Origin: Zingiber officinale
Taxonomy: Eukaryota; Streptophyta; Magnoliopsida; Zingiberales; Zingiberaceae
Reading direction: 5' to 3'
Assembly: GCF_018446385.1 (NCBI RefSeq)
Contig: NC_055993.1
Span: 41,103,645 to 41,167,644, forward strand
Length of the DNA: 64,000 nucleotides
A program made the position numbers and the translations under genes. Shown one piece after another: positions 2,507 to 50,388 of the stretch. Below the pieces are notes generated by a model. It was not told the DNA's origin. It made no database searches and saw only the letters and a program-made list of their open reading frames with translations. How positions within the stretch are numbered: position 1 is the stretch's first letter; every line of letters begins with the position of its first letter.

Positions 2507-2520
2507 ATCCCCCATACCTT
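2507..2520 (-). other. Element B polypurine tract
   Basis: Read on the minus strand this is AAGGTATGGGGGAT, directly upstream of the 3' LTR. It is the expected plus-strand priming site for reverse transcription of a minus-strand Ty3 element. Confidence 0.8.
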
Positions 2521-2541
2521 ATAAAAAGTTCGTCCTCGAAC

Positions 2542-4139: not shown

Positions 4140-4175
4140 ATTCAGATCCTTCTGAGTGAAGAAATACTTCAGACT

Positions 4176-5475
4176 CTAATGATCTGTATACACTCTGCAC
4201 TGAGCTCCATACAAGTAATGTCTCCAAATTTTGAGAGCGAACACTACTGCTGCAAGCTCAAGGTCATGAGTAGGGTAATTCTTCTCATATTCCTTGAGTT
4301 GTCTGGAGGCATAGGCGATCACCTTGCCATTTTGCATCAGTACTGCTCCTAGTCCCAACTTAGAGGCGTCACTATAAATATCAAAGCTGTCGGTGTTGGC
4401 TGGTAGAGTCAAAATGGGAGCACTGATCAATCTCCTCTTTAACTCGCTGAAGCTGTTCTCACAGTCCTCTGTCCACTGAAATTTTCTGTTCTTTCTGGTG
4501 AGAGCTGTCAGTGGGGAGGCTATTCTGGTGAAGTCCTCTACAAACTTTCTGTAATAACCTGCTAGTCCCAAAAAGCTTCTGATCTCACTAGCATTATTGG
4601 GTCTTTTCCAGTTACTCACAGCTTCTATTTTACTGAGGTCTACCATGATACCATCCTTTGAGATGATGTGACCCAGGAAGGACACCTGATCTAACCAAAA
4701 TTCACATTTCGTGAACTTGGCGTGTAGCTGGTGCTACTATTCTCAGGTGCTCTGCGTGTTCTTCCTGAGTTCCTGAATAGATAAGAATGTCATCGATAAA
4801 CACAATAACAAATCTATCTAGGTAGTCCCTGAATACTCTGTTCATGAGGTCCATGAAAGTAGCTGGAGCATTTGTCATGCTAAAGGACATGACTACGAAC
4901 TCGTAGTGTCCGTATCTAGTCCTGAATGTTGTCTTGGGTATGTCCCCTTCTTTAACTTTCACCTGATGATAACCTGATCTGAGCTCTATCTTAGAAAACA
5001 CTGCTGCTCCCTTTAACTGATCGAACAGGTCATCTATTCTGGGAAGAGGATACCTGTTCTTGATGGTGACTTGGTTCAGTGCCCGGTAGTCTATGCACAG
5101 GCGCATGCTCCCGTCCTTCTTCTTCACGAACAATACAGGCGCTCCCCATGGTGAGTGACTAGGACGAATGAAGCCCTTGTCAAGCAGCTCCTGTAGTTGC
5201 TCATGAAGTTCCTTCAGTTCTGCTGGAGCCATGCGGTAAGGTGCTTTGGAGATAGGATTTGTACCGGGAATGAGCTCTATCTCAAATTCGATCTCCCTGT
5301 CTGGTGCTAGGCCTGGTAACTCCTCAGGAAAGACTGCTGGGTAGTCACATACGACTCGGACCTCCGCTAGCTGTTGGTCTTTGTCCTGACTGGTATTGAC
5401 TACATGTGCTAGGAATCCCGTACATCCTGAATCCATTAATTTCTGTGCCTTCATAGATGAGAGAAATTTCTTCAC
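4176..5475 (-). pseudogene. Element B reverse transcriptase and RNase H
   Basis: The reverse transcriptase is in 5475-4702 on the minus strand: the [14 protein letters not shown] entry, [33 protein letters not shown], and the catalytic [10 protein letters not shown] near 4789. Two normally conserved spots are altered ([11 protein letters not shown] where Asp is usual, [12 protein letters not shown] where Gly-Leu is usual). A frameshift or stop near 4700 separates this from the connection and RNase H part (4685-4176) with [14 protein letters not shown], the catalytic FDIYSDAS and [20 protein letters not shown]. The family copies element RNA into DNA inside virus-like particles. The sequence is closest to Tekay/Del elements. 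Confidence 0.92.
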
Positions 5476-5538
5476 TTTTCTTTTTGGTTCTCCAATGTAC
5501 TCGAATTGCCCTTCTTCTTCAGGTTGGAATACAACTTT

Positions 5539-6333
5539 CTATTTATGACACTCTATAGAGGCACCGTATCTGATTAGGAAGTCCATTCCAAGGATGACAT
5601 CACAATCAGTCATATCTAGCACTATCAGATCACAAAAGAGTTCTCTGTCTGCTATAATGACTGGCACTGCTCTGAGCCAGTGCGTGGATGCCATAATTTC
5701 TCCTGAAGGTAGGGTGGTCAAAAACTGACCACTGAATACCTCTGGGGGTACTGCTAACTTTTCGGCGAATGCCCTGGATATATAAGAATGGGTTGCCCAG
5801 TATCGAATAAAACAGTTGCACTTTGCTGTAAAATACTAATCTGACCTGTAACAACTGTCGAGGCATTTGCTACGTCTTCTCTGGTTAAGGAGTAGATCCT
5901 TGCATTCATCATAGCTGGAGGGGCTTCTAGTCTGCCCTGGCTGATATGTGGACCATCTAAAACGGCCTGCATCTGATGTAGCTGTGCTGGCTGGCCTCCA
6001 TACTGTATCAGCTGTGGTTGAGGAAGACTTGTCTTGTTCGGGCATTGCTTAGCCATATGCCCTTCTTGTCCACATTCAAAGCATCCTCGTGTGCCCTTGC
6101 GACAAACTCCTGGGTGAAATTTCCCACAAGTAGCACATTTGGGATAACTAGGTTGTTTGCTGGCTGGTCCTCCCTTTGGGTAACTCCCTGGAGTTCCCTT
6201 TCCAGTTAGAGTTGTGGCCCTGTTGTTTCTGAGTACTTGAGCCTCCTTGCCCTTTGGACTCTGAGAGAACTTGCTTCTGCTGCTTGATATGGTTCTGGTA
6301 GTGCTCGGTGGTCAAAGCACTGCTGACTAGTTC
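5539..6333 (-). pseudogene. Element B gag zinc knuckle and aspartic protease
   Basis: The zinc knuckle (C-x2-C-x4-H-x4-C, reading ECGQEGHMAKQCP in part) is at about 6083-6042 on the minus strand. The protease active site reads LFDTGQP at about 5813-5793; Asp-Thr-Gly is kept, but the usual alanine after it is changed. A frameshift follows. The protease C-terminal half, VLDMTDCDVILGMDFL, lies in 5721-5539. The upstream part of gag is displaced to 9693-10406 by solo LTR H, inserted at 6334. Confidence 0.85.
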
Positions 6334-9300
6334 TGTAACGACCACCCTTCTTACTACTACTACTCTCTAAGGATGACCGTTACTTAACTACTAACTCTAC
6401 TTAACCGGTATGATTAAAAATCACATGGGAACCCTACCGAAAAATTTCAGCAGAGTCTCCCCTATACCGGTGACCTTAAACTGACATACATAACATAATA
6501 TACACAGCCATAGGCGGCTGGAACACATATCAAACACACAAAAGGAATAACATCACCACGCAGTTTAATGAAATCAAATCATGCAAGTAATGAATAGCGG
6601 AAACAAAATAAAAACATACAATTAACTAACAGCGGAAGACTAAATGACTCATCTAATACATTCTTAATAAATGACAATCTTAATAAATTCTTAAACTAAG
6701 TCCCAAGGCTTCCATAGTCCTGGCATCACACACCATCCGCGCCACCTTGTCGCCTTCCTTGCTAAATCTTTTCTTTTCCTTTATCTGCAGTAAGAGGAAG
6801 TGCAATCTATAAGAAAAATTTGCTTAGTAAGCGCTATCTAACTCACAAAATCACGAATGTGCATGTATACGAAAAGAACTAGAAACTATATGCTCTAAAA
6901 AGAAATAAAGCATAAACATAACTGCTCATGTCAAACTAATAGCGAAGAAAAGCTAAGGAATCTACTCATGTAATTCTAATAGCTAATCATGCTACTCATC
7001 TAATAGGTAAACATGAAAACTACTCATCCACTAGATAAACATGGTAGAATAAAGAACTAAACTTACTGATTTTTAGAACCATATGAAACTTATTTCATTT
7101 GTTCTAACTTAATCTTTAATACTTTATGTTTATGTAAAACTCGTTTTACTTGTTCAAAAACTTATACTTATAATACTTCAAAATAATAATCAACTTCTTC
7201 TTGGGCCCGGCAACTGTGCTTTTACTTTTGTATCGAGCCGACCAATAAAGCGGCACCTTCGTCTAGTGTACAAGACCTCGGAATTGGACACCTAGATTTG
7301 TTTAACGACAACCTCGGAAGTCGGGTACTAGCCTCTTCTTAAAAGTAAAATACTTATAATCTTAATTACTTCTTCTTTTAATGCCTTGGCATTTTAATAG
7401 GCACCTTGTGTGCCAAAATCCCTAAAGTCTTGACTTTTGGGATCTACTTAAGGCCTCGGCCTTTTCTTTCTTTTCTTTATCTTTCTTTTACTTTTCTTTA
7501 TCTTTCTTATACTTTTCTTAAACCCAAAATACTGTTAGGGTATCTTTCATATGAATCTATGAATGAAACTAACTATGTAACACATAATCATGCATAGAAT
7601 ACAAAAGAAATCTACACATATAATAGTTATCAAAAATCTGTACTAATACTTAACAGAGATCTACATACTAGCTTAATAAAAATCTGCATACTAAGCTTAT
7701 CTAATCTGCTCACTATACTAACTAACTTCTGCACTTGAAAGCCGAATAAAATTCTGCATATTAAGCTTAATAAAAATCTGTTTTATTAAGCTTATCTAAA
7801 ATCTACATACTAAGCTTAATCAGATCTGCATACTACTAACTAGGACAAAGCTGCATGCTCATAATACATGTATAGAAACTATGTAAAGCTTAAGCTCATG
7901 ATCTATGGACTGTTCTTGTAATAACACGCCTCTAACTGCATCCATGCTAAACCTAACTATTCTTAAACTAACTGTTCATGTCAAGTCTGATCATCCTTGA
8001 TTTACTTGGTTAAATTATATCCATAAAGTATCTTATCAATCTTAACTTACTTAACAAACGATATCAACTTTGGAAATCCACTAACCTGTCCATAGAGAAA
8101 GGAAATTCTGAAATCATCAAAATGTGCAGGAGCCTTAGATGAATTCACACTTCACCCTATAGATCTACTACCAAAACTATAACCAAAAAAAACTACAAGA
8201 CCAATTACAAGCCAATCATGCACATTAAGGCTGCACTGCTCATCAATTACAAGCTGATCATGCCTAGAAGAAATAAATCTGCTACAACATGTTCTGAAAG
8301 CAAGGAAAAGGACTAAATCCCAACAATACTTCAACTTAGCCTTTCTTAGAGCACAACTACTTAAACAATTATGACTTTCCAAGATGAACAATACAACTCG
8401 AATCCTCAGATCGCAGTTTAATAAAACTCATCAACCTCATAACATTCCAACTAACAATCCTCTTCTATCGCTTAACCTCACTATCCGAATCTCATACTCA
8501 AGTAACTGGAATGTAATTGCAATGCTAATTACAAGGGCTTCATCTATACTATTTAATTATTTTCTTTTCTTTTTCTTTGTGGTTCACGGCAACTAAATCT
8601 GTTCGTGCTTGCTAGACATGATAACAAACTAAAATCTGTTCAGGCTAATAAGCATGTAAATCTGGCAGTTTATTTAAGGTCAATAATTCAACATATAACT
8701 ACATGCTTAATCTAACCACTTTCCTCCTTTGCAATCCAAAGAAAGAATCAACAAACAGGAATTAAAATCCCTAGCGGCAAGCTTCAAGAATCAACACAGC
8801 AGCAAGCTTCGGAAATCATGAACACAAAAAGATCCGAAAACTGAAACCACAAGAAAATTCATGCAAAGCTTCGGAAACGAGAAAAGAACAAGGAATAAAA
8901 CCTCGGAGCTATCCTACTGCAAGTGAGTAGCAACTTACCTAGCGTTCTTGGACTTACAGCCGAGAAGAAGGCTTCTAATGCTTCTAGGGCTCGCGGAAAA
9001 CATGACAATCCGGCTCCACTTCGTGCCCACAAGCTCTCCTCGACGAAAGGATCGTGAGGAGGTGGAGAGCTCTCGGAAAACTCCCTCAATCGACCGCCGG
9101 AGTGAAGCCCTAGCCTTCCTTGCCTTCCGCCCGAGCATGGTCGTCGCGCGCAGAAGAGAGACGCGAGGAGAGGAGAAGGGAAAGTTAGGTCACAGGGTAG
9201 GAAAATAATCTCTTCTTATAACTTAGGCATTTTCTAATTCAGTTATGACTTAAGACCAATTCCTTATAAATTTGTTTATGAAATACCAGCTGGCGCGCTT

Positions 9301-9692
9301 GGTCCGCTTGAAAGATGAATTCCCGAAGGTCTCGGGTTCGAGCCGCCCTCGGCTCCTTTTTAAACGGAATTTTTATTTCGTTTCTTAAGACTGCTTAATC
9401 ATATTTAATTCCCTTAAATTATAACAAAACAGCCGTGGACCAGCTGGTTGTCTGAGTTCGGTTAAGACTCGGGTCAAGCCCGAGGTCTTGGGTTCAAAAC
9501 CCAGCTTCAACATTTTTCTTTCTTCTTTTTTTTTTTTAAACTTCTTCCTCTTGGTAAAAATACCAAATGAACTCCAAAAATTATATAAAAATACTCTATA
9601 AATTCCTAAAAATCTTTAGAATGTTTCTAAAGTATTTCTAAATATTTTAAAGTACTTTTAGGACTCCTAATGAGGAAAATTGGGTCTTTACA
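6334..9692 (-). mobile_element. Solo LTR H of a Ty3 element inside gag of B
   Basis: The 3359-bp block starts TGTAACGACC and ends TTTACA. It is flanked by the perfect 5-bp duplication AGTTC (6329-6333 and 9693-9697). Excising it rejoins the two halves of gag in element B. Its layout resembles the LTR of B: a CTTTATCTGCAGTAAG block near 6780 matches one in B near 1118, so it is a related family in the same orientation. No coding domain, primer site or purine tract was found inside. The 3.36 kb length is long for an LTR. Two tRNA-like stretches lie at about 9288-9358 and 9430-9520. ORFs at 8859-9208 overlap on both strands in a GC-rich part and look like chance. Confidence 0.85.
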
Positions 9693-10406
9693 AGTTCTTC
9701 GGTGGTTTGCGGCCTGTGAACGCCGCCAGCCACCTTCATTGCTATTTCCGGCCTCAGCATCTTGAGCATCAACCGGACTCGTTCTTTTTCTGTGCTGACT
9801 AGTTCGGGGCATAGACAAGCCAATCTATTGAATTTCTTCACAACTTCCTCAACTGATAGGTTGCCCTGACGAAACTCAGTGAACTCGTCGTAGTGGCGGT
9901 TTGTGACCCGCATGTGAAAGAACTCCTCGAAGAATTCTTTCTCGAAGTCAGCCCATGTCATCTGGTTCACTGGGCGCTTTGCTCTAATTCTCTCCCACCA
10001 CATACGTGCATCTCCTGCCAAGCAGAAGGAGGCACACTTCACCTTTCCATGCTCGCCACCCGTAAGCTCCAACGTACTCTCGGTGTTTTGAACCAGTGCT
10101 TGAGCATCCCATGGTTCACGCCTGAGAAGTTCTCGGCTTGACTCTCTGCCACTGGATCAAATAGGCTTCTGGTACTGGTGCTGGTGTTGTAGGGTGGATG
10201 GTGGAACCTCTATAACTACTGGGTTGCTATTTTTGGTTCCGGGGTGACGGAGTATTCTGCCGATTAGCCTTTAAGGTGGCTATCTCCTGTTGTTGTCAGC
10301 TAGCTGCTGATCGAGCCACTACTTAAGGTCCGGGAGGCACTGAACTGTCTGCCTCATGATGGGGCTCAGTAGCTGGTGCCCTTCTAGCTGGGCGTCCTCG
10401 TGCCAT
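9693..10406 (-). pseudogene. Element B gag, N-terminal part
   Basis: A minus-strand ATG at 10406 opens a reading frame beginning MARGRPARR, which is decayed by stops until about 10080. From 10072 the retrotransposon gag domain is clear: CASFCLAGDARMWWERI, TWADFEKEFFEEFF and the F-x-x-L-x-PEL region. Gag forms the particle. The frame is cut at 9693 by solo LTR H and continues at 6333. Downstream of 10406 come the leader and the primer site. Confidence 0.88.
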
Positions 10407-10603
10407 TTCTAAAGGAACAAAGGACATACATAACTAAAGCATCATGTTTACATAGCTAATACTATCATGTTAGTTACTATCACAACTAAGCATACTTTAG
10501 TTATCTACAAATATGAAAGCAATAAACATAACAGAGTGAGAGATATTCTTACTTGGAAGCTACAGGTTCAATGCTGATGTGTGTGTAGGAAGTATGGAAC
10601 TTT

Positions 10604-10615
10604 GCTCTGATACCA
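10604..10615 (-). other. Element B primer binding site (initiator Met tRNA)
   Basis: Read on the minus strand this is TGGTATCAGAGC, the standard complement of the 3' end of plant initiator Met tRNA. It lies three bases inside the right LTR. Confidence 0.93.
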
Positions 10616-10618
10616 CTC

Positions 10619-12843
10619 TGTAACGACCCGCCTTCTACTGGCTAGGTTGTAAGGCCGGACCGTCACATTATGCTATGCTAAGCTATCTCCATGACCATTA
10701 CTAAGTCTAGATGCGGAAAATTGTACCAATTTGAAACCTTGCTAAGCTAATACAAGTTCTTGGTACTACATGTGCTAAGGGATGCAATCTAAAGTATACA
10801 TGGCCTATCCTACATCCCCTATGGTCAAGAAGCCGAATTACAAGGTCTCTTGGTCGAAACCCAACTTTCCAATCGATCCAGACTGAACTCGATCGATTGC
10901 AAGTTGTTGGATCGATCCATGGATCGATTCAGATCGCTACTGTACTCGGGATAATAACCTGGATCGATCGGCTGATCAATCCAGACTGGCCAATCGATCT
11001 AGCGATCGACTGGATCGATCGACCGATCGATCCCGAACCTTACTGTTCGTGGAACCAGGCTCCCGATCGATCCACTGATCGATTGAGGGCTCCCAATCGA
11101 TCCACTGATCGATTGAGGGCCCCCAATCGATCCACTGATCGATTGGGGTTTCTGATTTCGCAGCAAAACTCTGATTTCAGCACTGTTTCGTGCCAAACTT
11201 ACCTACAAGAGTTCTATATTAGCTGGAAACATACTAATAAGACATAACTAAGATCCTAAACATGATCACTAACAATCTAAGCAGATTTTCTATAATTTCA
11301 TGCACTTAGATAACTAAATAAGCAAAGAGTAACATGATAAGAAACACTAAGTTCTTAAATGTTCTAGTTCTTCCAAGGTCTTTATTCCAGGTTCCTTCCA
11401 CACACATCTTCATCGCATTGACCTCCAACCTCCGCTAATCCATCTTCCCTTTACCTTTATCTGCAGTATAAGGAAAGAAGTATCTGTAAGCTTTACGCTT
11501 AATAAGAAACCATCTACCTCACTAAAACATGCATACGATGCAATTTATGTTTTTAAAAACATGCTATTTGAAATATACGCTGAACAGGTGAGAGCATGGC
11601 ATGGTATCATACAACATGGAAACCAAAAACTAATCATAGAACTATTACATGTATCAATGATGAAAACTAAGCTGAAGCATGAACTGAGCTAAAACTAAAA
11701 CTAAGCTGGAACTGAGTTTAAACTGTATACACAACTGATTTGTGAGTTTTGAAAACTATTTATCATAGATAGATTAAAATACATAATTATGCTGCTGATG
11801 GGCCCGGCAACTGTACGTGCTATGCGCGTATCCCTAACTAGACCCGGGTTTGCAAGTCCCGAATTTAGTAGGGTTTACTAGGTTATCTAAACCTAGGGAC
11901 GACTGTGGGAGCGCAACCCAATGGATATCTAATCCAGTACAGTGCCACTGCTAAAATAAAATACTGGTTATAGCTAAATTCTTCTTATTTTGCTATTTCT
12001 AGGTTATCTGGACCTAGAGCTAGGTTGTCTGAACCTAGAGGCGACTGTAGGAGCCCACCCATTAGACCGTAGTCCCATAAAAGCTATAGCAAGACTAAAT
12101 GTGCTATAAAATGCTTCTACTGCATTTATCTAAACTATTGAAATGCCTATGGTGACATTTTACTGAATTAAGCATTAAAGCAAACACTTGGTGTGCGCTA
12201 ATTCACACCCTATATACTGAAAATTCTGCATATGACTAAACTAATGCATAAAACGTACGAAGAGCTACTTATACTGCAGGTGAGGGGTTTCTTACATCCT
12301 GCGCTAGATTTCCTTATGATCTGATCGCTAGATTTCCGGTGGAGAAGATCCCTTCGTCGATCTCCTAGCGTCTACGTGTTCTTCTCGCGGAGAGGAGCGT
12401 CCTCGTGCCGGAGTTGTCGTCGGAAGGTGCTCTTGGAACCCTTGGGACGGAACCCTAGCCCTTGGGGCTTGGTGCGCCGAGAGAAAGAAGAGGAGAAGGG
12501 GGTGGCGAGTAAGGGTGAGGAGAAGAGGTAGGTCACGATAAAATTAAAACTCCTCCCTTAATTCCCTATTTATATTAAGTGATAAATTCGGCCCAACTCT
12601 AACATAAATATAATTGATTCCCTTTCCTTTCAGCACGGCCCTGCTGGGTTCACTTGGTTTCTAGAGTTCACCTTAAGTCATAGAACCCAATAGGTCTCGG
12701 GTTCAATTCTCGCGTAAGCTATTCTACGATTCTATTTATTTTTGCTACTTCTGCTACTCTAAAAATTCTGTAAAAATATCCTAAAATTCCAAAAAAATCA
12801 TAGAATATTTCTAAAATAATTTTGAGAATTTTCGGGTGTTACA
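10619..12843 (-). repeat. Element B 5' LTR (right copy)
   Basis: The copy is 2225 bp and pairs with 259-2506. It differs mainly in its palindrome array (about 10860-11150), which has three tandem copies of a unit of about 33 bp where the left LTR has one, and which lacks part of the left copy's array. It carries the same tRNA-like block at about 12633-12720. Confidence 0.93.
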
Positions 12844-12848
12844 AAGAT

Positions 12849-25156: not shown

Positions 25157-26354
25157 ATGTCTCAAATCTTGAAGAGACTCTGATGAGGAAGCGGTGGATC
25201 TAGCAAAGGAGATGTACCAGGAGGAGACAAAGACAAAAGAAAGGCTTCTTCTTCCAAAGGCAAAGGGAAAAGGGTGGCACACGACGAAGGTAGCGAAAAT
25301 GAATTTAATATTATTTTTAGAAATCATGAACATAAAGCTAAATATGATATTCTGGCGGCTAGAAAAATTGTGTGCACTAGATATATGGATCTCACTATCA
25401 TGGATATGTTAGGAATTAGGGATGACGTGGATTGGATGATTAGCTCATTAGATTGGAATGACATTATATACACTCGTTTACCGACTTACCCCCGCCTTGA
25501 ATTTTTGAGCTCAATTGATGTTAAATTTTCTTCTGAGGATGACTACATAGGGGTCATATCTTTTAGGTTGATGAACAAAGAAATTCGATTTTGATTTACC
25601 TACTTGCGGTGCCCATGGATTTGATAGTGCTATTAACTGGAATGAATTTTGGACGTCAATTACTGGATCAAAGAACCCCTATGAGCCCTCTAGAGCTAAG
25701 GCATCCCGCATGCAAAACCCTACCTTTAGATACCTTCACCGTGTGATGAGCAAAACAATATTTGGTCGAGATGAAAGTGATGGGGTGGTTAGAAAAGTGG
25801 AACTTTATTCTCTTTGGGCGATGCTAAATAAAGTAGACTTTGATTCTGGATTTGATTTCCTACAGAACTTGCTGAGAGCAGCTAAAGCCTCTTCGAGGAT
25901 GATAGTGTTTAGTGGTTTAATAACCTAAATAGCAATAAATCTGGGGTGTGAGCTTGATAGGCTAGAGGTCGTTCATGGTAATGACAAGATCAACATCGAT
26001 TCTTGTCTTGCAATGAAGATGATTTGTCGGGACGAGAATGAGTTTGCTTTCCCTAAGAACGATGGTTTCCCATTACCCCTTCCTTGTTCCGAGCGCACTT
26101 CAGTTCACAACCCCGCAAACTAGGTGATCACCGATTCAGACCCCAAGTTTGTTCCCCCCCCCCCCTTGTAGGAGACACCGAATACCACCAAGAGCCCTCG
26201 TCATCAGGATTCCCGCAACCTTCCGGAACCTGCTAGGCACTCCTTTGCCTATGGTACGGGACCTTCTAGATTTGATGTTTTTGATTTCCATGCCTCCTTA
26301 GACTCGCTTAATGAGAAGCACAATACCCAACAATAACTGTTGGAGGGTTGTTTC
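25157..26354 (+). pseudogene. Athila ORF-1-like gene in element E, part 1
   Basis: ATG at 25157 opens MSQILKRL, then two stops, a Lys-rich linker, and from 25300 a run matching the Athila ORF-1 family in style: AARKIVCTRYMDLTIMDMLG, DWMISSLDW, LPTYPRLEFLSSI. A single frameshift near 25590 leads to NWNEFWTSITG, ASRMQNPTFRYLHRVMS and FGRDESDGVV. A stop is at 25926 and a 12-C run at 26154. In Athila elements this ORF sits where an envelope gene would be; its role is not established. Element C interrupts it at 26355, and it resumes at 34065. Confidence 0.75.
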
Positions 26355-27852
26355 TGTTGGGGCAATTTCCCTAGGTCAAGTTTGACCAGTTTGACTAAGC
26401 TTGAGTTGAGTCAAGCTTGAGTCAGGATTGGAGTTTTGATGTTTGACAATATAAGGAGGTTGCTGGATCAATCGCCCGGTTATGGAGATGGTCAAAGAAT
26501 TGACTAGGTTGATGAGAATACAAGTTAAGTATGTCAAGGTTGACAAGAGACTTGATTGGGAAAGTCCTAACTGGATATTAGGCATTTGGAAAGTCCTAGT
26601 GAGGACCTAGGCAGGAGAAAGTCCTGGTGAGGAGCCACGCAGTTGGAAAGTCCAAGTGTGATCTTGGCAAAGGAGAAAGTCCTGGTGAGGAGTCAGGCAA
26701 TTGGAAAGTCCAAGCATGTGGTCTTGGCAAGGTAAGTCCTGGTATGACTTGGCAAGGAAGACCCGACAACTAGGATGAGGCCGAAGGAAGCTCCTGAAGG
26801 CAAGGCGTGAAGGATGGGGAGAAATCCGAGGGACGCAAGGCTGATGGAGGAGGCTAGAAGGATAGTTTGAGGTTGGTCGGGTGTGGCCAAAGGCTAGGCA
26901 TGGAGACCCAACAGGTCACGGCTGACCGGAAGTTGGGTTTGGGACTTTGGACTTGAGTTTGAGTCAAGTTCAGAGTGTTCAATCGATCGGGTGATCGATT
27001 GAACAGGGTCCAAATCTATCGGTCAATCGATTTGGACTGTGCTGCGATTGTGGGAAGGCACAATCGATCGGCCGATCGATTGGGATATGAAATCACGAGC
27101 ACAGAGACTTTCCCAATCGATCGTGCGATCGATTGGGAGTTGCCAATCGATCGGTCGATCGATTGGGCAGCAGAAGCTCTCACGCGGATGCGAGAGCACA
27201 GAAAGGTTCTGAATCGATCGGGCGATCGATTCAGAAAGTCCCAATCGATCGGTCGATCAATTGGGAAATGACCGTTGCGCAGGATGCAGGTGATGGACGG
27301 CTGCGATGGAGCGATGCTGACGTGGCAGTCTATTGGGGATGAATTCGATCAATTGGGAGCATTGTTTAAATCCTGGGCAGAGCATTTTCTCCACAAATTT
27401 TTGAGATCTTTCTCCTGCGATTTTTCGGTGATCTTCAGCAACTTTCTTCGATCTTCACCGCCTGTTCTTGAAGGCTCTTGGGAGTGTTCTCTCAAGGTTC
27501 AAGAGGCAACAACAAACAACAAGCAACAAGTAAGCAAGAAGAATGGTGTATTGTAGTTATATCTTGTATTTTCTTCTTGTGTGAGTTGTGTTGTTGTGTG
27601 TGGATTTGTACGAGGCTTCTCCGCCTCCGGTTGCGACCGAAAAGGAGTTGTTCATAGTGGAGGAGCGTGTCATGTGTAGATCCTTGGATTAGTCACCTCT
27701 TCTTGAGGTGGATACCAAGTGAACCCTAGGTGTTAGCATTGTGAGTGTTTGTCTTCGAGTATTCCGCTGCACAACAACAAGATGAAGCAAACCGACACAA
27801 GCGTGACGAAACACTATTCACCCCCTCTCTAGCGGACACATCGGTCCCAACA
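26355..27852 (+). repeat. Element C 5' LTR
   Basis: The LTR is 1498 bp. It carries seven palindromes centred on GATCGATC words at 26975-27270 and a possible TATA-like TTTAAA near 27365. Repeats with the words AAAGTCCTGGTGAGGA lie at 26590-26760. Confidence 0.95.
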
Positions 27853-27870
27853 ATTGGTTTTAGAGTGAGG
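27853..27870 (+). other. Element C primer binding site, decayed
   Basis: ATTGGTTTTAGAGTGAGG keeps the position and 9 of 12 bases of the initiator Met tRNA complement. Confidence 0.6.
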
Positions 27871-29403: not shown

Positions 29404-32400
29404 CTAAGACTTCTAAGAAGTCTAACAAAGTCACAAAGAAGGTTACAAGGGAAGTCATTCCTAGGAGTGACCTAGTAGAGGTGACCAAGACTTCTAAGAA
29501 GCCTAGAAAGGTCCTTAGGAAGGTATCTAGGGAAGTCATCTCTAGTGAGTACTTAGAGCATCCAAGGAGTACCAATAGGTTTTAGGTTCCTAGGAGCATA
29601 TTCTCTACACTCTAGATGAGTTTAGAGAGCGTCAACTTCAATTGGAAAGGTAGTTAACCCAACCTTGGTAAAGTTGACACTTGAGAGCATTTTCAAAGTT
29701 ATTGTTAACCTTTGAAAATGAGAAGGATTATTAGGGTTACTCTTTGAAAGAGTAAAATGTGTCAAAATTTGAGGAGTTGGATCTAATTTAAATTGACACA
29801 CTTGAGAGAGGCAAAAGAAATGCCAAATTGGGAATTTGACATTTTCTTATGGGATTAAGGAAAATGTAAACCGTAATCCAAATTGTCACTCTTGGAAAGA
29901 GTAATATGTGCCAAATCTTAAGGAATTATGTTTGAATTAAATTGGCACAATTTGGAGAATCATATGAACTACCAAGTTGAGATTTTGGTATGTTCGTTGG
30001 GAGTCAAGGGCAAATCCGGGCTTAAAATATAAGGTGATTACTCCTTTGGAAGAATAAATATGCCAAAATTTGAGGAATGTGCTTAATTTTAATTGGAATA
30101 AATAAATCAAGAGATTAAAGAAATGCCAAGTTGGGGTTTGACACTTTGTTAATGAAATTGGGCAATCTAGGATTTAATTTTAAGATTAGCTAAGGTTTAA
30201 GGACACTTAGATAGGTAATCTAAGTATTTTATTTAAGCTAATTTGTCATATTTTGTTTGTCCATCATATGTCATGACATCATATTTATTTTTGCATTCAT
30301 GATTATTATTAAAAATATAAGAAATACCATGTCATGTCATTCATACATCATGTAGTTATAGGAAATTTTCTTTTGGAAATTATTTCTTTTTGATGTATGT
30401 CATAACATATCATGCATCATATTTAATTCCTTGAAATTAAGGAAAAATGACATCTATTATAAATGGTAAATATCTCAACAAGTGGGATGACACCAAGTGA
30501 TATCCTAGGTGGATGATCACAAGTTTCATAATGCCTAGATAGTTATGCATGATCTCTTAGTTTAGGGAAAAACCAAATATACATCTCACAAAGAACTATA
30601 AGATAACTTGTATGTATTTTAGTATACATTATATACAAGTGAGATGTTAGAATGGAGAACAAAACTCAAGATGTTGATTTAGTGCATCTTGTCGAGTTTT
30701 AGGTTCATCAAAACACATAGTTATGTGTTTTCCAATCATTAGGAAAGCTAATGTACAAGTCATGTTCATTGAGCCCAAAGAATATGGTTGGATATTGGAT
30801 TTTAAAATGTTTTTAAAATGATTTTGAAAACCTTGGTGAAGACTATCTTTTGATAGTATTCATCATTGAAAAGTTAGACATAAACTAGGAGAAAACATTG
30901 AAGTTTTCAAGAGTTTTCAAATTTGTGTCAATCTTTGAAAATAGGAAGTATTTTTATAGAAAAATATTTTTTCTTGATAGAATATACTCTAAATAATGTC
31001 TACATGAGTTTTCATGATTTTTAGAGGTTTGTAGAATTTTTGGGGAGTTTCTGAAGTCTACTGAAATTGAATTTCAAAGAAATCAGAAACTCAATCGATC
31101 AGCTAATTGATTGGGATGGTTTTAATCAATCAGTCAACCGATTGAGAAGGTAATTCCCGTGAATAGAGAGTCAGCGGATCGATCAGTTAATCGATTGACC
31201 CAGGCTGAATCGATCAGCCGATCGACTCAGAGGGAATTTCTGCAAGCAGAAGCTCGTGGAATCGATCAATGGATCGATTGAAGTAGCTTCAATCGATTGA
31301 GTCCCAACTTCAATTGATTGAGTCCCAACTTCAATCGATTGGAAAGTCTGATTATGGCTGGAAAAGCCTGATTTCAACACATTAAGCCACTTCAAGTTCC
31401 AATAATCATTCCAAATCCCTTGAAATAATTTGTATACATTTAGGGGGAGTTTTCTTGATGAAAACATGTATGGATTAGCTAAGATAAATCAAATTGAAGT
31501 TTAGAATGAGGTTTAGTTTCAATTTCGAATTTTAGAACCTCAAAACTTCAAGTTTTGGTTTTCAAAGGTCATTAACCATTCCTAACCCTTTGGAATACAC
31601 TTGTATACATTTAGGGGGAGTTTTCATTATGAAAGCAAGTATGGATTGGTTAAGGTAGACTTAGGTGAAGTTTAGGTTAGAGTTTAGTTTCATTATTGAA
31701 TTTTAAACATCAAAACTTTAAGTTTTGGTTTTCCTAACTGTTTAGGAACTCCAAAGTTATTGTTGGTGCAATGACAGAAGTTTGACCATGTTTTTAGGGG
31801 GAGTTACTCCTTGAGTGCATGAAAATTTATCTTCAAGGACCTTGGAAAGGGGTTAAACCTTTGTAATGGACAATACTCAGGGTCGAGTATTAGGGAACAA
31901 TGGAAGATTGGTTACCTTCTTTGATAGGATGATAAATGCTCTCGGATGAGCATTGTGGAGTAGGTTACTGCTCAAGGGGGAGCATTGGATTAATGAAGGG
32001 GATCAGACCTTCATTGGTAAAGTGAAAAATGCTTTTGGATGAGCATTGAGAAGAAGATTACTGCTCAAGGGGGAGCATTGAATACAAAGAATGGGAGTTT
32101 CATTGGGAAGTTGATGCATGCTCTAGGATTAGCATTGTAAAGTAAAGTAAAGCTCAAGGGGGAGCAATGGAGAATATGAGATCTTCATTGTGGGGTTGTT
32201 AACAACATATGAGGTTGTAAACAACGTAGAGTTAACTCTTATGGAGAAGAGTTTGTTTTCAATTTTTGATGTGTGACAAAGGGGGAGAATGGAAGGTTAA
32301 GTTAGGCCTTCATCCCAAGCAGGGGGAGTTTGCCCTCTAGGAAAGGGAGAGAATGAAGGAAACCTTCATTCAAGCCTTGGTGTAAAGAAGAGGTTAAGAC

Positions 32401-32567
32401 TATGAGATTTAGCCTTGTGATAAAGAAGATGTTAAGGCTATGGGATTTAGCTTTGGTATAAAGAAGTGATTAAGGCTATGGGATTTAGCCTTATGATAAA
32501 GAAGATGTTAAGGCTATGTGATTTAGCCTAACTTAGAGGTATTGTCAAACATCAAAAAGGGAGAGAT
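29404..32567 (+). other. Element C non-coding interior and polypurine tract
   Basis: No pol domain was found in any frame. It has short Lys-rich repeats to 29585 (TKTSKK and VTREV words, still readable), AT-rich filler, a palindrome array at 31085-31345, then repeated phrases: GCTCAAGGGGGAGCATTG at about 31970, 32065 and 32155, and GGCTATGGGATTTAGCCTT at 32400-32530. It ends in the purine tract AAAAAGGGAGAGAT (32554-32567). Confidence 0.8.
31085..31345. repeat. ATCGATC-type palindrome array in the interior of C
   Basis: About eight inverted repeats of the CAATCGATC and GATCGATTG type, more diverged than those in the LTRs of C. It ends with a triplicated 23-bp unit around TCAATCGATTGAGTCCCAAC at 31290-31345. 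Confidence 0.8.
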
Positions 32568-34059
32568 TGTTGGGGCAATTTCCCTAGGTCAAGTTTGACC
32601 AGTTTGAGTAAGCTTGAGTTGAGTCAAGCTTGAGTCGGAATTTGAGTTTTGATGTTTGACAATATAAGGAGGTTGCTGGAGAAATCGTCCGGTTATGAAG
32701 ATGGCCAAAGGATTGACCAGGTTGATGAGAATACAAGTCAAGTATGTCAAGGTTGACAGGAGACTTGATTGGGAAAGTCCTAACTGGATGTTAAGCATTT
32801 GGAAAGTCCTAGTGAGGACCTAGGCAGGAGAAAGTCCTGGTGAGGAGCCAGGCAGTTGGAAAGTCCAAGTGTGATCTTGGTAAAGGAGAAAGTCCTGGTG
32901 AGGAGCCAGGCAATTGGAAAGTCCAAGCATATGGTCTTGGCAAGGTAAGTCCTGGTATGACTTAGCAAGGAAGACCCGACAACTAGGATGAGACCGAAGG
33001 AAGCTCCTGAAGGCAAGGCGTGAAGGATGAGGAGATATCCGAGGGACGCAAGGCTGATGGAGGAGGCTAGAAGGCTAGTTCGAGGTTGGTCGGGTATGGC
33101 CAAAGGCTAGGCATAGAGACCCAACAGGTCATGGTTGACCGGAAGTTGGGTTTGGGACTTTGGACTTGAGTTTGAGTCAAGTTCAGAGTGTTCAATCGAT
33201 CGGGCGATCGATTGAACAGGGTCCAAATCAATCGATCGCTCAGTTTGGACTGTGCTGCGATTGTGGGAAGGCCCAATCGATCGGCCGATCGATTGGGATA
33301 TGAAATCACGAGCACAGAGACTTTCCCAATCGATTGGGCGATCGATTGGGAGCTGCCAATCGATCAGTCGATCGATTGGGCAGCAGAAGCTCTCACGCGG
33401 ATGCGAGAGCACAGAAAGGTTCTGAATCGATCGGGCGATCGATTCAGAAAGTCCCAATCGATCGGTCGATCAATTGGGAAGTGACCGTTGAGCAGGATGC
33501 AGGTGATGGACGACTGCGATGGAGCGATGCTGACGTGGCAATCTATTGGGGATGAATTCGATCAATTGGGAGCACTGTTTAAAGCTTGGGCAGAGCATTT
33601 TCTCCACAAATTTTTGAGATCTTTCTCCTGCGATTTTTCGGTGATCTTCAGCAACTTTCTTCGATCTTCACAGCCAGTTCTTGAAGGCTCTTGGGAGTGT
33701 TCTCTCAAGGTTCAAGAGGCAACAACAAGCAACAAGTAAGCAAGAAGAAGGGTGTATTGTAGTTATATCTTGTATTTTTCTTCTTGTGTGAGTTGTGTTA
33801 TTGTGTGTGGATTTGTACGAGACTTCTCCGCCTTCGGCTACGACCAAGAAGGAGTTGTTCATAGTGTAAGAGCATGTCGTGTGTGGATCCTTGGATTAGT
33901 CACCTCTTCTTGAGGTGGATACTAAGTAAACCCTAGGTGTTAGCATTGTGAGTGTTTGTCTTCGAGTATTCCACTACACAATAATAAGACGAAGCAAACT
34001 GACGCAAGCGCGACGAAACGCTATTCACCCCTCCTCTAGCGGGCACATCGGTCCCAACA
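32568..34059 (+). repeat. Element C 3' LTR
   Basis: The LTR is 1492 bp and pairs with 26355-27852. Seven palindromes lie at 33190-33480. Confidence 0.95.
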
Positions 34060-34064
34060 GTTTC

Positions 34065-36999: not shown

Positions 37000-37936
37000 G
37001 TAGGCATCGGTTCGACCTAGGATTTTAGGAGGAAATCCGAAAGTCAGAACTGGACAATCCAGAAATTATCAAAAGTTATCTTTTATATTACTTTATTATT
37101 TGCTATTATTCTAACTTTATTTTGTAGGAGACTAACATCTTTTGCATGGCTAGATTCGACCTTTATCAGTAGACTAAACATTCGAATCGGTCGATCGAAC
37201 CTCCAATCAACAAAATCAGATTTTCAGCCAGCTGATTGAGTTCGACCAAGGGATCGATCGACCGAATCTCGGGATCAGTCGACCGAACAGTGGATATGCG
37301 ATGACCAAGATCAGGCCGGATTGATCAAATCATACCAGATAAGCCAATGAGGATAGCGGGATCGGTTGACGAAATGGTGGGATCGATCAACCGAACAAAG
37401 ACTTATCTAAAGTTGAATCTGGATGGGAAGACGAAGCAATTCAGGCAGGATTGGTCGATCGAACGTTGGGATCAGTCAACCGATCAACATTGAGTCAAAG
37501 ACTGATCCCAAAATTAGTGGATCTGGATCAGGTCTAGCTCGGCTATAAAAAGAGGGTTGACCAATAGCTTCGATACAACACATTCAGAACAATCATCTTA
37601 TGTGCGCGTTGCTCTGAAACAACTCAACAACACTCAGCCGTTGCTCCGACAATCACCGAATAACTGCTAATCATTTGTTGTTAGTATACCTTGCTTTTTT
37701 AATACTTGTACTTGCATATTTGTAAAGAATTTACGAATTAATAGTGGATTGCCCAACGTAAGTGATCAAGGATCGTGAACCTTAGACTTGGAGTCGTCAC
37801 AATCTCAGAACCAAGTAAAACCAAAGGTGTTAGTTTTGTCTTCTCTCTTTATTCTGCTATGTTATTCTGTGTTTTCTGAAACGAGCGAAAAAACCATAAG
37901 TACTATTCACCCCCTCTAGCACGCATTGATCCTACA
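37000..37936 (+). repeat. Element A 3' LTR, second segment
   Basis: It resumes after element E. It includes the GGTCGACCGAAC-type repeats (37180-37460), TATAAAA at 37544-37550 and the LTR end GATCCTACA at 37936. Confidence 0.88.
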
Positions 37937-45790: not shown

Positions 45791-46778
45791 TGTAGGATCG
45801 AAAGAAGTGCTAGAGGATGAATAACACACGTCGCTTACTCATTTAAATTTTTTTTTTCTTTTTGAAAGATAGGCAGCAGAAACACAATGCTAGGGCAGTT
45901 TTATTTTACTTGGTTCACAGTCTTAGACTACTAATCCAAGGCTCGCGATCATTAATCGGTTTGATTAGACAATCTACTATTAATCTCTTTCTTCGAGGAG
46001 AAAGAGATTCATCTCTTTGCAAATAATGAGGAACAGTAACAAGTTTACCATTCCTTAGAGTTTAAAGCACGAAGATGAAATGAAAGTGCAAGTATACTGA
46101 CAAAAAGAGATCTCGAAGGGTTGCTTTGTTATCAAAGTAGCACAGTGGCATTGTATCAAGATTTCAGAGCAAAATGAGAGTGAGAGGGCGTATCACAATG
46201 ATGTTTTGAAGCCTCTAGTCGAGATTTTCGTTATAGATTAGGTTCGGTGTACTGATCCACCCGATCGATCATCCATATCCTCAAAATCAGATCTAGATGT
46301 AGTTTTTGGTCGACCGATCTATAGGATCGATCTACCACTCCAGCCTTCTACTAGTGACTTTCCTCCTCGTTAGTGCCTTGACGTCGATTACCTGCCACGT
46401 CAGCTATGCATTCCTTATCCTTGACCATGCCTTTTGCCATGTCAGCAGGTCAACTCTTATCCCTGTGTCATGTCAGCCAAATGGTCCTTATCCCATGTCA
46501 CGTTAATCATCCAAGACTTATCTTGTCCATCTTGGATGCCATGTCAGTACATAAGACATCTCAATTGACACCTCAACATAGGGTTGATTGAACCATGCCT
46601 TTTGGTCTGCTGAACTGTTCAGTCTATTGAATATTTCAATCCACCAATTGGCTCGATCAGTATACCGAACCCCATAAAATAAGACTAGCACAGAATATGA
46701 TAATTAAGCACAAAAAGGTTTGACAGTTACTTAACTATTCGATCTTGACTTTGGAATCCTAGTGAAACCCTTAGTCAA
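45791..46778 (-). repeat. SIRE-like LTR remnant, minus strand
   Basis: It starts TGTAGGATCG and CTAGAGGATGAATAACAC, the reverse complement of the end of element A's LTR. Internal words (GTGCAAGTATACTGAC) also match in reverse. GATCGATC and GGTCGACCGATC palindromes lie at 46255-46335. The right limit is uncertain. Confidence 0.6.
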
Positions 46779-47786: not shown

Positions 47787-50388
47787 TGTTGGTTGCTACT
47801 CGAAAAACCTAATGGTTCCACTGTACAAAAATTTTGTACAAAGGTATGAACCTTTTCCTAGCTACCATGTGTTCTTTTAAATTAAACTTGGATCACCTGT
47901 GGAACTTAACACGTTTGATCCAAAGTTTAATCTATTTGTTCTTTTAGGTTTAGACTCGGATCTCCTGCGGAACTTAACACGTTCGATCCAAATCACCTAG
48001 GTTATTAATTTCATTAAATATTAATTTTTAAAATTGGCTTCCAGTACTGACGTGGCGAGGCACATGGCCTTCTTGGATATGGGAACAACCACCACCGACT
48101 AGACAAAGCCTTTTAAGGAAAGTTAATATTTAATTTCCTTAAATAACTTTAGGTCAACCGAAAAGAACAATCAAATCACAAGAAAAATAAATAAAAAAAA
48201 AACAAAAGAACACAACATCGAAAACAAATTCGAAATACTAGAATCGCATGCCTCTTGTATTTGGTATTATTTTCAAAAATAACTAGTATGATGCGGAAAG
48301 GAAAAATACTAGTTATACCTTTTAGAAAGACCTCTTGATCTTCTACCGTATTCCTCTTCTAACCTCGGACGTTGTGTGGGCAACGATCTTCCGAGATGAG
48401 AAACCACCAAAGCACCTTCTTCTCCTTTCTTCAAGTTTCGGCCAAGTACAATGCTTACAAAAGATGAAGATCTTTTTCCACCAACCAAGCTCCAAGGGAT
48501 GCATGAAACAAGACTCCTTTCTCTCCTTTTCTCCAAGCTAGATCCGGCCACTTCTATGCCTCCAAGATATGATGAAGTCTCGGCCACAAGAAGGAGAAAG
48601 GGAACCTCTAGGGGCCGGCCACACCAAGGAAGAAAAGAGAGGAAGAAAAAGAATAGAGTCGTTCATCATGAAGCCTCCTCTACCCCCTCTTTTATAATCC
48701 TTGGTCTTGGCAAATAAGGAAATTTAAATAAAAACTTCCTTAATTCTTTTGCCATGAAAAGGAAAATTTATTTAATTAAAAATAATTTTCTCTTCTCCAA
48801 TTTATTTGGCCGGCCACTTCTTTCCCCAAAACAAGGAGAGTTTTAATTAAAACAAAAATTAAAACTTCCTAATTTGTTTCTAGAAATTTATAAAAATTTC
48901 TCCAATAATTTTAATCCCTTCATGATTGGTTAATAAAAAGAAATTTTATAAATTAAAATCTTTCTTTTAAACATGTGGATAATTTCCAAAAGGAAAGTTA
49001 TCTCTAAAAATTAAAATCTCCTTTCAATCTACAAATAAGGAAAGATATTAAATCTTTTCTTAATCTTTTGTAGATACTAATAAAAGAGAATTTTAAATTT
49101 TTAAACTTTCTTTTAAATCATGAACATAATTAAAAGGAAAGTTTTTACCAAAATTAAAATCAACCTTTTAATCTACAAATAAGGAAAGAGATTTAGCTCT
49201 TCTCTTAATCTTTTGTAGAATCTTATAAAAGGAAAGATTTAAATTTTTAAACTCTCATTTAAATCATGTTATCCACATAAGAAAAATTTTTAAAAATAAA
49301 AATCCTTTTATTTTAATTTGGGCCGGCCACACCAAACTTGAACCCAAGCTAGGGCCGACCACCTTGAAGCACCCATGAACCAAACTTTGGCCGGCCCTAG
49401 CTTGGTCTCCAAGCTAGCTTGGCCGGCCCCTATGGGATGGGTAAGAAGGTAGGTATAGGTGGGTATAGTACTCTATAATTAAGAGGCTACAATAGGGACC
49501 GAGAGGAGGAATTGGTTTTGGTCTCCCGATAAAATTAAGCATCCCGTGTTCACCCCGAACACACAACTTAATTTTATCAATAATAATTCATTCCACTAGA
49601 GAACTATTATTAAACTACCGCACCAATCCCAAATTACATTTTGGGCTCCTTCTTATTATGAGTGTGTTAGTCTCCCTGTGTTTAAGATAACAAATGTCCA
49701 CTAATTAAGTAAGTTACTGACAACTCACTTAATTAATATCTAGCTCCAAGAGTAGTACCACTCAACTTCATCGTCATGTCGGACTAAGTCCACCTGCAGG
49801 GTTTAACATGACAATCCTTATGAGATCCTCTTGGGGACATTCTCAACCTAGATCACTAGGACACAGTTTCCTTCTATAATCAACAACGCACACTATAAGT
49901 GATATCATTTTCCAACTTATCGGGCTTATTGATTTATCGAACTAAATCTCACCCATTGATAAATTAAAGAAATAAATATCAAATATATGTGCTTGTTATT
50001 ATATTGGGATTAAGAGCACACACTTCCATAATAACTGAGGTCTTTGTTCCTTTATAAAGTCAGTATAAAAGAAACGACCTCTAATGGTCCTACTCAATAC
50101 ACTCTAAGTGTACTAGTGTAATTATATAGTTAAGATAAACTAATACCTAATTACACTACGACCTTCCAATGGTTTGTTCCTTTCCATCTTGGTCGTAAGC
50201 TACTGTTTATAATTTATAAGGTACTGATAACATGATCTTCTGTGTGTGACACCACACACCATGTTATCTACAATATAAATTAATTGAACATCTACATTTA
50301 TCATAAATGTAGACATTTGACCAATGTGATTCTTATTTCTAGATAAATGTTTATACCAAAAGCTAGGCTTTTAGTATACATTCTAACA
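47787..50388 (-). repeat. Element G 3' LTR (left copy)
   Basis: It aligns with 55002-60228. A promoter-like TTTTATA (minus-strand TATAAAA) is at 48690-48696. GGCCGGCC and CAAGCTAG palindromes lie upstream of it on the minus strand, at 49320-49430. The 92-aa minus ORF at 48309-48587 recurs at 58136 only because it is in both LTRs. Confidence 0.95.

What the first reader, a model, noticed from the sequence alone, without database searches (positions are those of the whole stretch)
26975..27270. Hairpin array in the LTR of C whose two arms change together
Seven inverted repeats lie in 300 bp. The core arms are CAATCGATCG and CGATCGATTG around a 2-base centre. Outside the core the flanks differ from copy to copy but stay complementary within each copy: GTTCAAT pairs with ATTGAAC, CCAAAT with ATTTGG, TCTGAAT with ATTCAGA, CCCAAT with ATTGGG. 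The second LTR (33190-33480) shows the same. Covarying flanks suggest the paired structure itself, not one binding sequence, is generated or kept. Candidate explanations are template switching during reverse transcription, hairpin-templated repair, or selection for RNA/DNA folding or dimeric protein binding.
Basis: partly seen in the sequence, partly recalled or inferred. Interest (0 to 1): 0.85.

Follow-up and report, generated by a model that had tools for sequence, protein, structure and literature searches.

The report
Matched-arm palindrome array in ginger retrotransposons
A mobile element in the ginger genome carries seven short mirror-image DNA sites near its likely promoter; such sites are a known feature of this element group, but here the two halves of each site match in an unusually specific way, and sites like them number in the hundreds of thousands across the genome.

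Summary
Observation confirmed. Seven inverted-repeat units lie at 26976-27266 and again in the second LTR. The window is ginger (Zingiber officinale). Element C is a gag-only, Sirevirus-type Ty1/copia element; its array corresponds to the palindromic "repeated motif" arrays published for Sirevirus LTRs.

The covariation claim splits in two. Between copies it fails: in 40 close copies two-sided Watson-Crick changes number 7, expected 6.7; C's own LTRs show 0 compensated of 11 changes. Between units it holds: in 354 units of 62 arrays, flank positions 1-5 match their own partner far above a within-array swap control; positions 6-12 do not. Among 90,532 exact sites with C or G at flank -2 on both sides, 80,561 are complementary, 55,575 expected.

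Flanks are not free: four triplets dominate, the same on both arms in 232 of 354 units, 72.7 expected. I favour symmetric protein-binding DNA sites before the promoter, with arm-to-arm template copying as a possible source of matched flanks. The same half-site array lies in both LTRs of a Ty3/gypsy element. Function is untested.

The parts
26355..27852 (+). 5' LTR of element C (TGTTGG...CCAACA), flanked by target-site duplication GTTTC (26350-26354 / 34060-34064)
   Evidence: self-BLAST 94.3% to the 3' LTR; edges and TSD read directly
32568..34059 (+). 3' LTR of element C
   Evidence: K2P 0.054 to the 5' LTR
26976..27005 (.). palindrome unit u1 (flank GTTCA/TGAAC)
27008..27037 (.). palindrome unit u2 (flank GTCCAA/TTGGAC; core damaged in this copy)
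27059..27084 (.). palindrome unit u3 (one mismatch in the flank of this LTR)
27111..27138 (.). palindrome unit u4 (TCCCA/TGGGA)
27143..27166 (.). palindrome unit u5 (CCA/TGG)
27207..27236 (.). palindrome unit u6 (TTCTGA/TCAGAA)
27239..27266 (.). palindrome unit u7 (TCCCA/TGGGA, one core change)
33189..33480. the same seven-unit array in the 3' LTR (its unit 2 too damaged to be listed)
27365..27371 (+). TATA-like TTTAAAT about 100 bp after the array; some copies read TATATA or GATATAA here
   Evidence: promoter role inferred
27853..27866 (+). LTR/PBS junction: ATTGG followed by a decayed met-tRNA primer site (3 mismatches to ATTGGTATCAGAGC)
   Evidence: Sirevirus junction described in PMC2829016
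28099..29403 (+). gag ORF with CCHC zinc knuckle; the two protein hits found are from Zingiber officinale
   Evidence: Pfam zf-CCHC
31094..31342 (.). second, more decayed array of the same kind of unit in the linker upstream of the PPT cluster
31442..32328 (+). eight AGGGGGAG octamers (starts 31442, 31613, 31796, 31975, 32068, 32157, 32280, 32321)
32540..32567 (+). left arm of a perfect 18-bp inverted repeat (32540-32557; right arm 32647-32664), terminal PPT variant AGGGAGAG (32558-32565) and AT before TG of the 3' LTR
   Evidence: 0 of 500 shuffles reach the score
34022..34039 (+). C-rich stretch 20 bp from the LTR end, the place of the reported Sirevirus integrase signal
   Evidence: PMC2829016
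10868..11150 (.). array with the same half-site in one LTR of element A, a Ty3/gypsy element on the minus strand; the other LTR has its array at 505-815
   Evidence: domains in Ty3 order

Best explanation
The array is a Sirevirus-type repeated-motif (RM) cluster in an LTR, upstream of a TATA-like box. Each unit is a dyad about 28 bp long: two inverted half-sites of the form TC-YSR-ATCGRTC (R, Y and S degenerate) separated by 4 bp. I think a symmetric, dimeric host DNA-binding protein, or a few paralogues with different flank preferences, recognises the unit as double-stranded DNA and helps drive or regulate LTR transcription. Units are mostly homotypic: both half-sites carry the same flank type. 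That symmetry was set in the replicating source lineages; each integrated copy then decays independently, mostly by C>T/G>A changes. SHOWN: array anatomy, Sirevirus-type context, strongly preferred 4-bp spacing, restricted flank alphabet, homotypic flanks with an edge between positions 5 and 6 in the full set, no maintenance after insertion. INFERRED: protein binding, dimerism, promoter role, selection on source copies. Identity as a Sirevirus-type RM array: about 0.9. The protein-dyad mechanism: about 0.5. The rivals below are not all exclusive of it.
For: Sirevirus-type context (criteria from PMC2829016). The array sits before a TATA-like motif. Spacing of exact inverted half-sites in the window plus 200 kb: N4 50, N0 4, and one each at N3, N5, N7 and N9 among spacers 0-10. 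In the first 100 rows listed genome-wide, all in the first 1.5 Mb of contig C1, 81 are N4, 2 are N3, 1 is N2 and 16 are longer (my tally). Restricted alphabet: CCA 236, TGG 158, TGA 102, TCA 102 of 708 half-sites; same triplet on both arms 232 of 354, 72.7 expected if independent. Own-partner complementarity in 354 units: positions 1-5 z 8.6, 13.4, 10.6, 6.4, 6.7; positions 6, 7, 8 z -0.1, -0.3, -0.2; 11 representatives of differing families 261 of 432 against 214.4, z 5.7, none of 4,000 swaps as high. At flank -2, among exact sites with C or G on both sides: 80,561 of 90,532 complementary, 55,575 expected, odds ratio 46.5. CpG observed/expected is 1.59 in the array, 0.35 before and 0.77 after it in the LTR. 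The same kind of half-site in elements of two superfamilies points to a shared host factor or exchange between elements.
Against: No binding, expression or small-RNA data. Why units of different flank type sit side by side is not explained unless several proteins or a broad specificity exist. With 11 family representatives, position 5 is not significant (25 of 72 against 21.5), so the edge at 5/6 rests largely on related arrays; in an earlier set of 8 representatives positions 7-12 had a weak excess (102 of 288 against 88.7, z 1.9). Some arrays break the rule: element A's arrays show little excess (15 of 35 against 13.3; 20 of 40 against 15.2), and L113 has several C..C units. Unit-to-unit spacing (mainly 30-32, 41-42, 48-54, 66-68 bp) is only partly helical. 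The folded RNA is very stable, so RNA-level roles are not excluded.
Confidence: 0.55

Rival explanations
1. Arm homogenisation: during reverse transcription or DNA replication the nascent strand folds back at the self-complementary core and copies the flank of one arm into the other, so units acquire matched but unit-specific flanks without selection for pairing. (Not exclusive of the best explanation.)
For: Homogenisation of inverted-repeat arms by template switching is described (starts of the abstracts of PMC8604942 and PMC3820800 in the listing; abstract of PMC8794818). Unit 2 of this family carries +A on the left and +T on the right arm compared with relatives such as L078 and L084; of the 100 rows listed (contigs C1-C3, of 582 matches) 77 have neither, 21 both (one of them with a further change), 2 only the right, 0 only the left (my tally). 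Between 13 C-lineage arrays (12 loci at 69-87% identity plus C) pairing slightly exceeds a column shuffle: 377 of 680 against 366.3, p 0.007, relatedness not controlled.
Against: The unit-2 change is probably one ancestral event. Only 3 of 7 units (u2, u3, u7) show an excess. Fold-back copying should extend variable distances and accept any flank, but agreement ends between positions 5 and 6 in the full set and flanks are Y-S-R restricted. No excess of compensated changes among 40 close copies.
Confidence: 0.3
2. Selection for an RNA or single-stranded DNA hairpin (genomic RNA structure, dimerisation, or host small-RNA production), so that pairing itself is kept.
For: Array RNA folds at -150.3 kcal/mol, z -10.9. 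In maize, an excess of small RNAs maps to Sirevirus palindrome clusters (passages of PMC10760457 and PMC5311732, citing a 2016 paper not held). Matched flanks of varying sequence are what pairing selection predicts.
Against: Pairing selection does not need Y at -3/-4, S at -2 or a 4-nt loop, yet these prevail. Extra complementarity stops between positions 5 and 6. No excess of compensated changes among 40 close copies.
Confidence: 0.12
3. Nothing beyond duplication and drift: units were copied from one another as ready palindromes and the appearance of covariation is inherited.
For: Correct for orthologous units across copies: independent decay. Unit numbers change by tandem gain and loss, for example between the two LTRs of element A.
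Against: Duplication of one palindrome cannot give different flanks that are each self-complementary. Own-partner complementarity beats within-array swaps in 11 representatives of differing families, and counts at flank -2 give an odds ratio of 46.5. Counts of copies are not independent events; the between-family test is less affected.
Confidence: 0.15

Closest known systems
Sirevirus LTR repeated motifs (RM), Bousios et al. 2010, PMC2829016 (passages and parts 2-4 of 7 read)
   Same: Palindromic units clustered in the LTR upstream of a TATA box, further units in the linker, multiple AGGGGGAG octamers, AT/TG attachment site, inverted repeat at the PPT; element Tnd-1 (tobacco, recalled) has the related RM ACAATCGATTGT (Table 3).
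   Different: There the RM is a 10-20-bp consensus per element and was absent from the other Ty1/copia elements compared; Ty3/gypsy elements were not part of that comparison. Here units are about 28 bp, differ in flank within one array while staying symmetric, mostly have a 4-bp spacer, and occur also in a Ty3/gypsy LTR. The array starts 621 bp into the LTR rather than 200-400 bp, and linker units occur although no + ORF of 60 aa or more (so no intact env) follows gag.
Maize Sirevirus palindromes as small-RNA hotspots (Bousios et al. 2016; known here only through passages of PMC10760457 and PMC5311732, and recall)
   Same: Palindrome-rich cis-region of the LTR; motif CACCGGACNNNGTCCGGTG.
   Different: Different core; small RNAs not tested in ginger; flank covariation between units is not mentioned in the passages I read.
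Quasipalindrome correction / template-switch mutation (PMC8794818 abstract; PMC8604942 and PMC3820800 abstract starts in a listing)
   Same: Creates or restores matched inverted-repeat arms in one event.
   Different: Generic replication mechanism; would be applied here to retrotransposon dyads; only one candidate event seen.
Heat-response elements in Brassicaceae COPIA LTRs (PMC5059998, abstract start in the listing)
   Same: Recurrent gain of host-factor sites in LTR cis-regulatory regions.
   Different: Known stress response; no matched-flank dyads in what I saw.

Membership tests
Sirevirus (Ty1/copia) retrotransposon | multiple identical AGGGGGAG PPT octamers clustered upstream of the 3' LTR | tested here: met
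   8 copies starting 31442-32321 and 1 elsewhere in the element (28833)
Sirevirus (Ty1/copia) retrotransposon | terminal PPT AGGGGGAG directly followed by the AT/TG attachment site | tested here: inconclusive
   AT/TG present at the right place, but the terminal octamer reads AGGGAGAG; relative L064 has AGGGGGAG/AT/TG
Sirevirus (Ty1/copia) retrotransposon | inverted repeat whose left arm borders the PPT | tested here: met
   perfect 18-bp repeat, left arm ends at 32557; right arm about 79 bp into the LTR, further than the reported mean of 28
Sirevirus (Ty1/copia) retrotransposon | 5' LTR/PBS junction CA/ATTGG/TATCAGAGC | tested here: inconclusive
   CA/ATTGG intact, primer site 3 mismatches; L047, L059, L054 keep TATCAGAGC after CA/AGTGG or CA/AGTTG
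Sirevirus (Ty1/copia) retrotransposon | C-rich signal about 21 bp from the LTR end | tested here: met
   TATTCACCCCTCCTCTAG, 20 bp from the end, read directly; not aligned to the published signal, whose letters I did not see
Sirevirus (Ty1/copia) retrotransposon | gag with central CCHC knuckle | tested here: met
   Pfam zf-CCHC E 4.3e-6
Sirevirus (Ty1/copia) retrotransposon | reverse transcriptase that falls in the Sirevirus clade | not testable with these tools
   C has none to place: no copia RT or integrase match inside it (tblastn with ginger copia ORFs, E 1e-3) and no + frame of 60 aa or more between 29585 and 32600. C is gag-only and presumably non-autonomous, so its filing as Sirevirus-type rests on non-coding hallmarks
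Sirevirus repeated motif (RM) | repeated palindromic motif, at least 8 copies per element counting one LTR plus linker | tested here: met
Sirevirus repeated motif (RM) | cluster starting 200-400 bp into the LTR and lying shortly before a TATA box | tested here: inconclusive
   starts 621 bp in, ends about 100 bp before a TATA-like TTTAAAT
Sirevirus repeated motif (RM) | CGG-CCG core | tested here: inconclusive
   CGGCCG in u3 only; other units read for example CGGTCG, CGGGCG, CGGGTG, CGTGCG; Tnd-1 also lacks it in the source table
Sirevirus repeated motif (RM) | regulates transcription | not testable with these tools
   the source paper itself asks for experimental confirmation
Template-switch (quasipalindrome) product | bases changed on both arms in one step | tested here: inconclusive
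   one candidate, the paired +A/+T of unit 2

The most novel reading that the evidence does not exclude
Ginger retrotransposons of two superfamilies share a genome-wide dyad code: some 200,000 sites (extrapolated) built from one half-site, in which each unit's two halves are kept alike in a 5-base flank chosen from about four types. Either a family of paralogous homodimeric host proteins reads these types, or arm-to-arm copying during the element's replication keeps rewriting one half to match the other. To my knowledge both would be new for LTR regulatory regions.
Probability: 0.4. Interest if true: 0.75.

Novelty: new variant of a known kind. Interest (0 to 1): 0.6.

Why it matters
Palindrome arrays in Sirevirus LTRs have been described since 2010; the papers I saw name no protein that reads them and do not explain their symmetry. 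Ginger offers a very large natural experiment: hundreds of thousands of units with several flank types, a limited extent and a strongly preferred spacer. It makes testable whether symmetry is kept by a dimeric protein, by RNA structure or by a copying mechanism, and why elements of different superfamilies use the same half-site. If a host protein reads them, these elements have placed one such site per roughly 14 kb of genome on average, clustered in arrays (my extrapolation: 278,999 matches times the 81% N4 share of the first 100 rows, over 3.09 Gb).

Tried and rejected
Considered and rejected: covariation maintained among close copies (7 two-sided Watson-Crick changes, 6.7 expected; all two-sided changes 17 against 11.1, of which 8 are one outer pair of u6, TA to CC; 4 of 93 pair positions whose commonest state is unpaired were set aside). 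Inversion as the source of the odd unit 2 of the second LTR: by eye the direct and inverted readings fit equally badly. Helical phasing of units: spacings cluster and a periodicity statistic beats a uniform null (spacings of 12 arrays typed in), but a few modes, tandem 30-bp unit duplication (element A) and inherited spacing explain this too, so I do not claim it. First family clusterings of arrays were too loose because shared cores or single linkage joined nearly everything; replaced by masked-context clustering with a score threshold. A viral-contig scan for the core found 0. Seven paper searches showed no listed title or abstract start describing matched-flank dyads in LTRs; (ATCGAT, retrotransposon, LTR, palindrom) found 0 papers. 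I did not read most listed papers, and the 2016 maize paper is not held.

Limits. The 40 copies are the 40 scored of 2,793 candidates, this element's two LTRs included, so they are biased to close relatives. L067-L094 were chosen because they hold an exact AATCGATCGNNCGATCGATT, which forces the A/T pair at flank -1 for at least one unit each; L095-L114 are 20 of the places listed, chosen by S-AAT...ATT-S, which restricts but does not force flank -2. Both sets lie in the first 6.3 Mb of contig C1. Units had to be within 2 mismatches of two self-complementary core templates, so core pairing itself is not evidence. Only arrays of 3 or more units enter (62 arrays from 69 sources; other units dropped). 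In one search some units are missing (L072 in u1, u5, u7; L075 in u7; L079 and L081 in u2) and u2 of L075 and L082 is misassigned. LTR age (2.1 My) uses an assumed rate. Row tallies are mine and cover only the rows listed.

Full report
WHAT WAS CHECKED. The seven inverted repeats at 26976-27266 and their second copy at 33189-33480 are in the sequence as described. They are far beyond chance: z -10.9 for folding, and 57 such units in 20 arbitrarily placed 10-kb pieces of the genome against 0, 0 and 4 in simulations.

WHERE IT IS. The window is ginger. The element's gag best matches a Zingiber officinale protein (61% identity over 28% of the query; 2 hits in all) whose contig length, 194,392,478, equals that of contig C2 of the window's assembly. 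The assembly has 3.09 Gb, like the published ginger genome of 11 chromosome pairs and 3.1 Gb (start of the abstract of PMC8342452 in the listing). Element C has LTRs 26355-27852 and 32568-34059, target-site duplication GTTTC, a gag ORF with a zinc knuckle and no copia reverse transcriptase or integrase match inside it. A similar element lies in L054: gag 58-67% identical, and longer DNA stretches of the internal region at 73-80%.

WHAT KIND OF ELEMENT. Criteria published for Sireviruses (PMC2829016; passages and parts 2-4 of 7 read) were tested. Met: eight AGGGGGAG octamers before the 3' LTR, AT/TG attachment bases, a perfect 18-bp inverted repeat bordering the PPT, the CA/ATTGG junction, a C-rich stretch 20 bp from the LTR end, and palindromic repeated motifs in the LTR and linker. 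Altered: the terminal PPT has one change and the primer site has three. Not testable: there is no reverse transcriptase to place in a tree. The repeated motif of Tnd-1, ACAATCGATTGT, is close to the core here (Table 3).

COPY-LEVEL TEST. The 40 copies scored by the search (of 2,793 candidates; this element's two LTRs included) were aligned. At 93 pair positions, 226 cells changed on one side, 181 of them C>T or G>A. Seven cells carried a two-sided Watson-Crick change; 6.7 are expected if the arms change independently. All two-sided changes together are 17 against 11.1; 8 of them are one outer pair of u6 changed to an unpaired CC. Between the two LTRs of C, 11 differences fall in the units and none has its partner changed. 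After insertion the arms simply decay.

UNIT-LEVEL TEST. Flanks were compared with their own partner and with partners swapped between units of the same array, which keeps composition and motif preference. In the window array: 28 of 35 against 18.6. In 62 arrays with 354 units from the window and 68 loci: positions 1 to 5 out from the core give z 8.6, 13.4, 10.6, 6.4 and 6.7; positions 6 to 8 give about zero, and 7-12 together 621 of 2,124 against 616.0. With 11 arrays of differing families: 261 of 432 against 214.4, z 5.7; there position 5 alone is not significant. An earlier set of 8 representatives had a weak excess at 7-12 (z 1.9). Genome-wide, exact AATCGATC-N4-GATCGATT sites with C or G at flank -2 on both sides number 90,532; 61,882 are C..G and 18,679 are G..C, leaving 9,971 mismatched, an odds ratio of 46.5. 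These are counts of related copies, not independent events.

WHAT THE FLANKS LOOK LIKE. They are not arbitrary. At -3 to -1 the triplets CCA, TGG, TGA and TCA make up 598 of 708 half-sites, and 232 of 354 units have the same triplet on both arms, 72.7 expected. Among exact inverted half-sites 0 to 10 bp apart in the window plus random sample, 50 of 58 are 4 bp apart; by my tally 81 of the first 100 rows listed genome-wide are 4 bp apart (contig C1, first 1.5 Mb), and many of the rest look like distances between neighbouring units. Preferred spacing, restricted alphabet and a limited extent are the marks of a symmetric DNA site. A free stem would accept any pair.

HOW THE MATCH MAY ARISE. Between C-lineage arrays (12 loci at 69-87% identity, plus C) pairing exceeds a column shuffle slightly (377 of 680 against 366.3; three of seven units; relatedness not controlled). 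The clearest single case is unit 2, where this family has an extra A on the left and an extra T on the right: of the 100 rows listed, from contigs C1-C3, 77 have neither, 21 have both, 2 have only the right, 0 only the left (tally; 582 matches in all). Either both arms changed at once, as in template switching, or one-arm intermediates do not spread.

BEYOND SIREVIRUSES. Element A of the window (257-12844, minus strand) has gag, protease, reverse transcriptase, RNase H and integrase in Ty3/gypsy order, and both its LTRs carry an array of the same half-site. In its own arrays the own-partner excess is weak (15 of 35 against 13.3, p 0.28; 20 of 40 against 15.2, p 0.038). An array with core ATCGGTC-N4-GACCGAT lies beside Ty1/copia gag and integrase ORFs in L059. 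The 2010 paper compared Ty1/copia elements only, so it does not speak to Ty3. Sharing across superfamilies points to a common host reader or to exchange between elements.

VERDICT. A known kind of structure, Sirevirus LTR palindromes, in a new and informative form. Which process does it is open; I favour a symmetric protein site, with template copying as a possible way new matched flanks arise.

Noticed in passing
257-12844 (minus strand): Ty3/gypsy element whose LTRs carry ATCGATC-N4-GATCGAT arrays; its two LTRs differ by tandem gain or loss of about 30-bp units.
   Followed up: partly
15-220, 37169-37476 and 46251-46331: Further partly palindromic GGTCGA/ATCGAT-rich repeats near other element pieces, decayed.
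   Followed up: no
L047:1405-1796 and L059:4265-4585: Arrays with a second core, ATCGGTC-N4-GACCGAT, also with matched flanks (one unit 8 of 8 positions).
   Followed up: partly
L066:6245-6389: Three long ATCGATT-type palindromes beside the primer site of a copia element, apparently just after it and so outside the LTR.
   Followed up: no
L113, from about 203: An array in which several units have mismatched C..C at flank -2; an exception to the homotypic rule that could be a useful control.
   Followed up: no
32647-32664: Right arm of the PPT inverted repeat lies about 79 bp inside the LTR, further than the reported Sirevirus mean of 28 bp.
   Followed up: no
47787-50388 and 55002-60228: A 98% identical repeat pair flanking a copia reverse transcriptase match (50751-51831, minus), probably the LTRs of a young element.
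   Followed up: no
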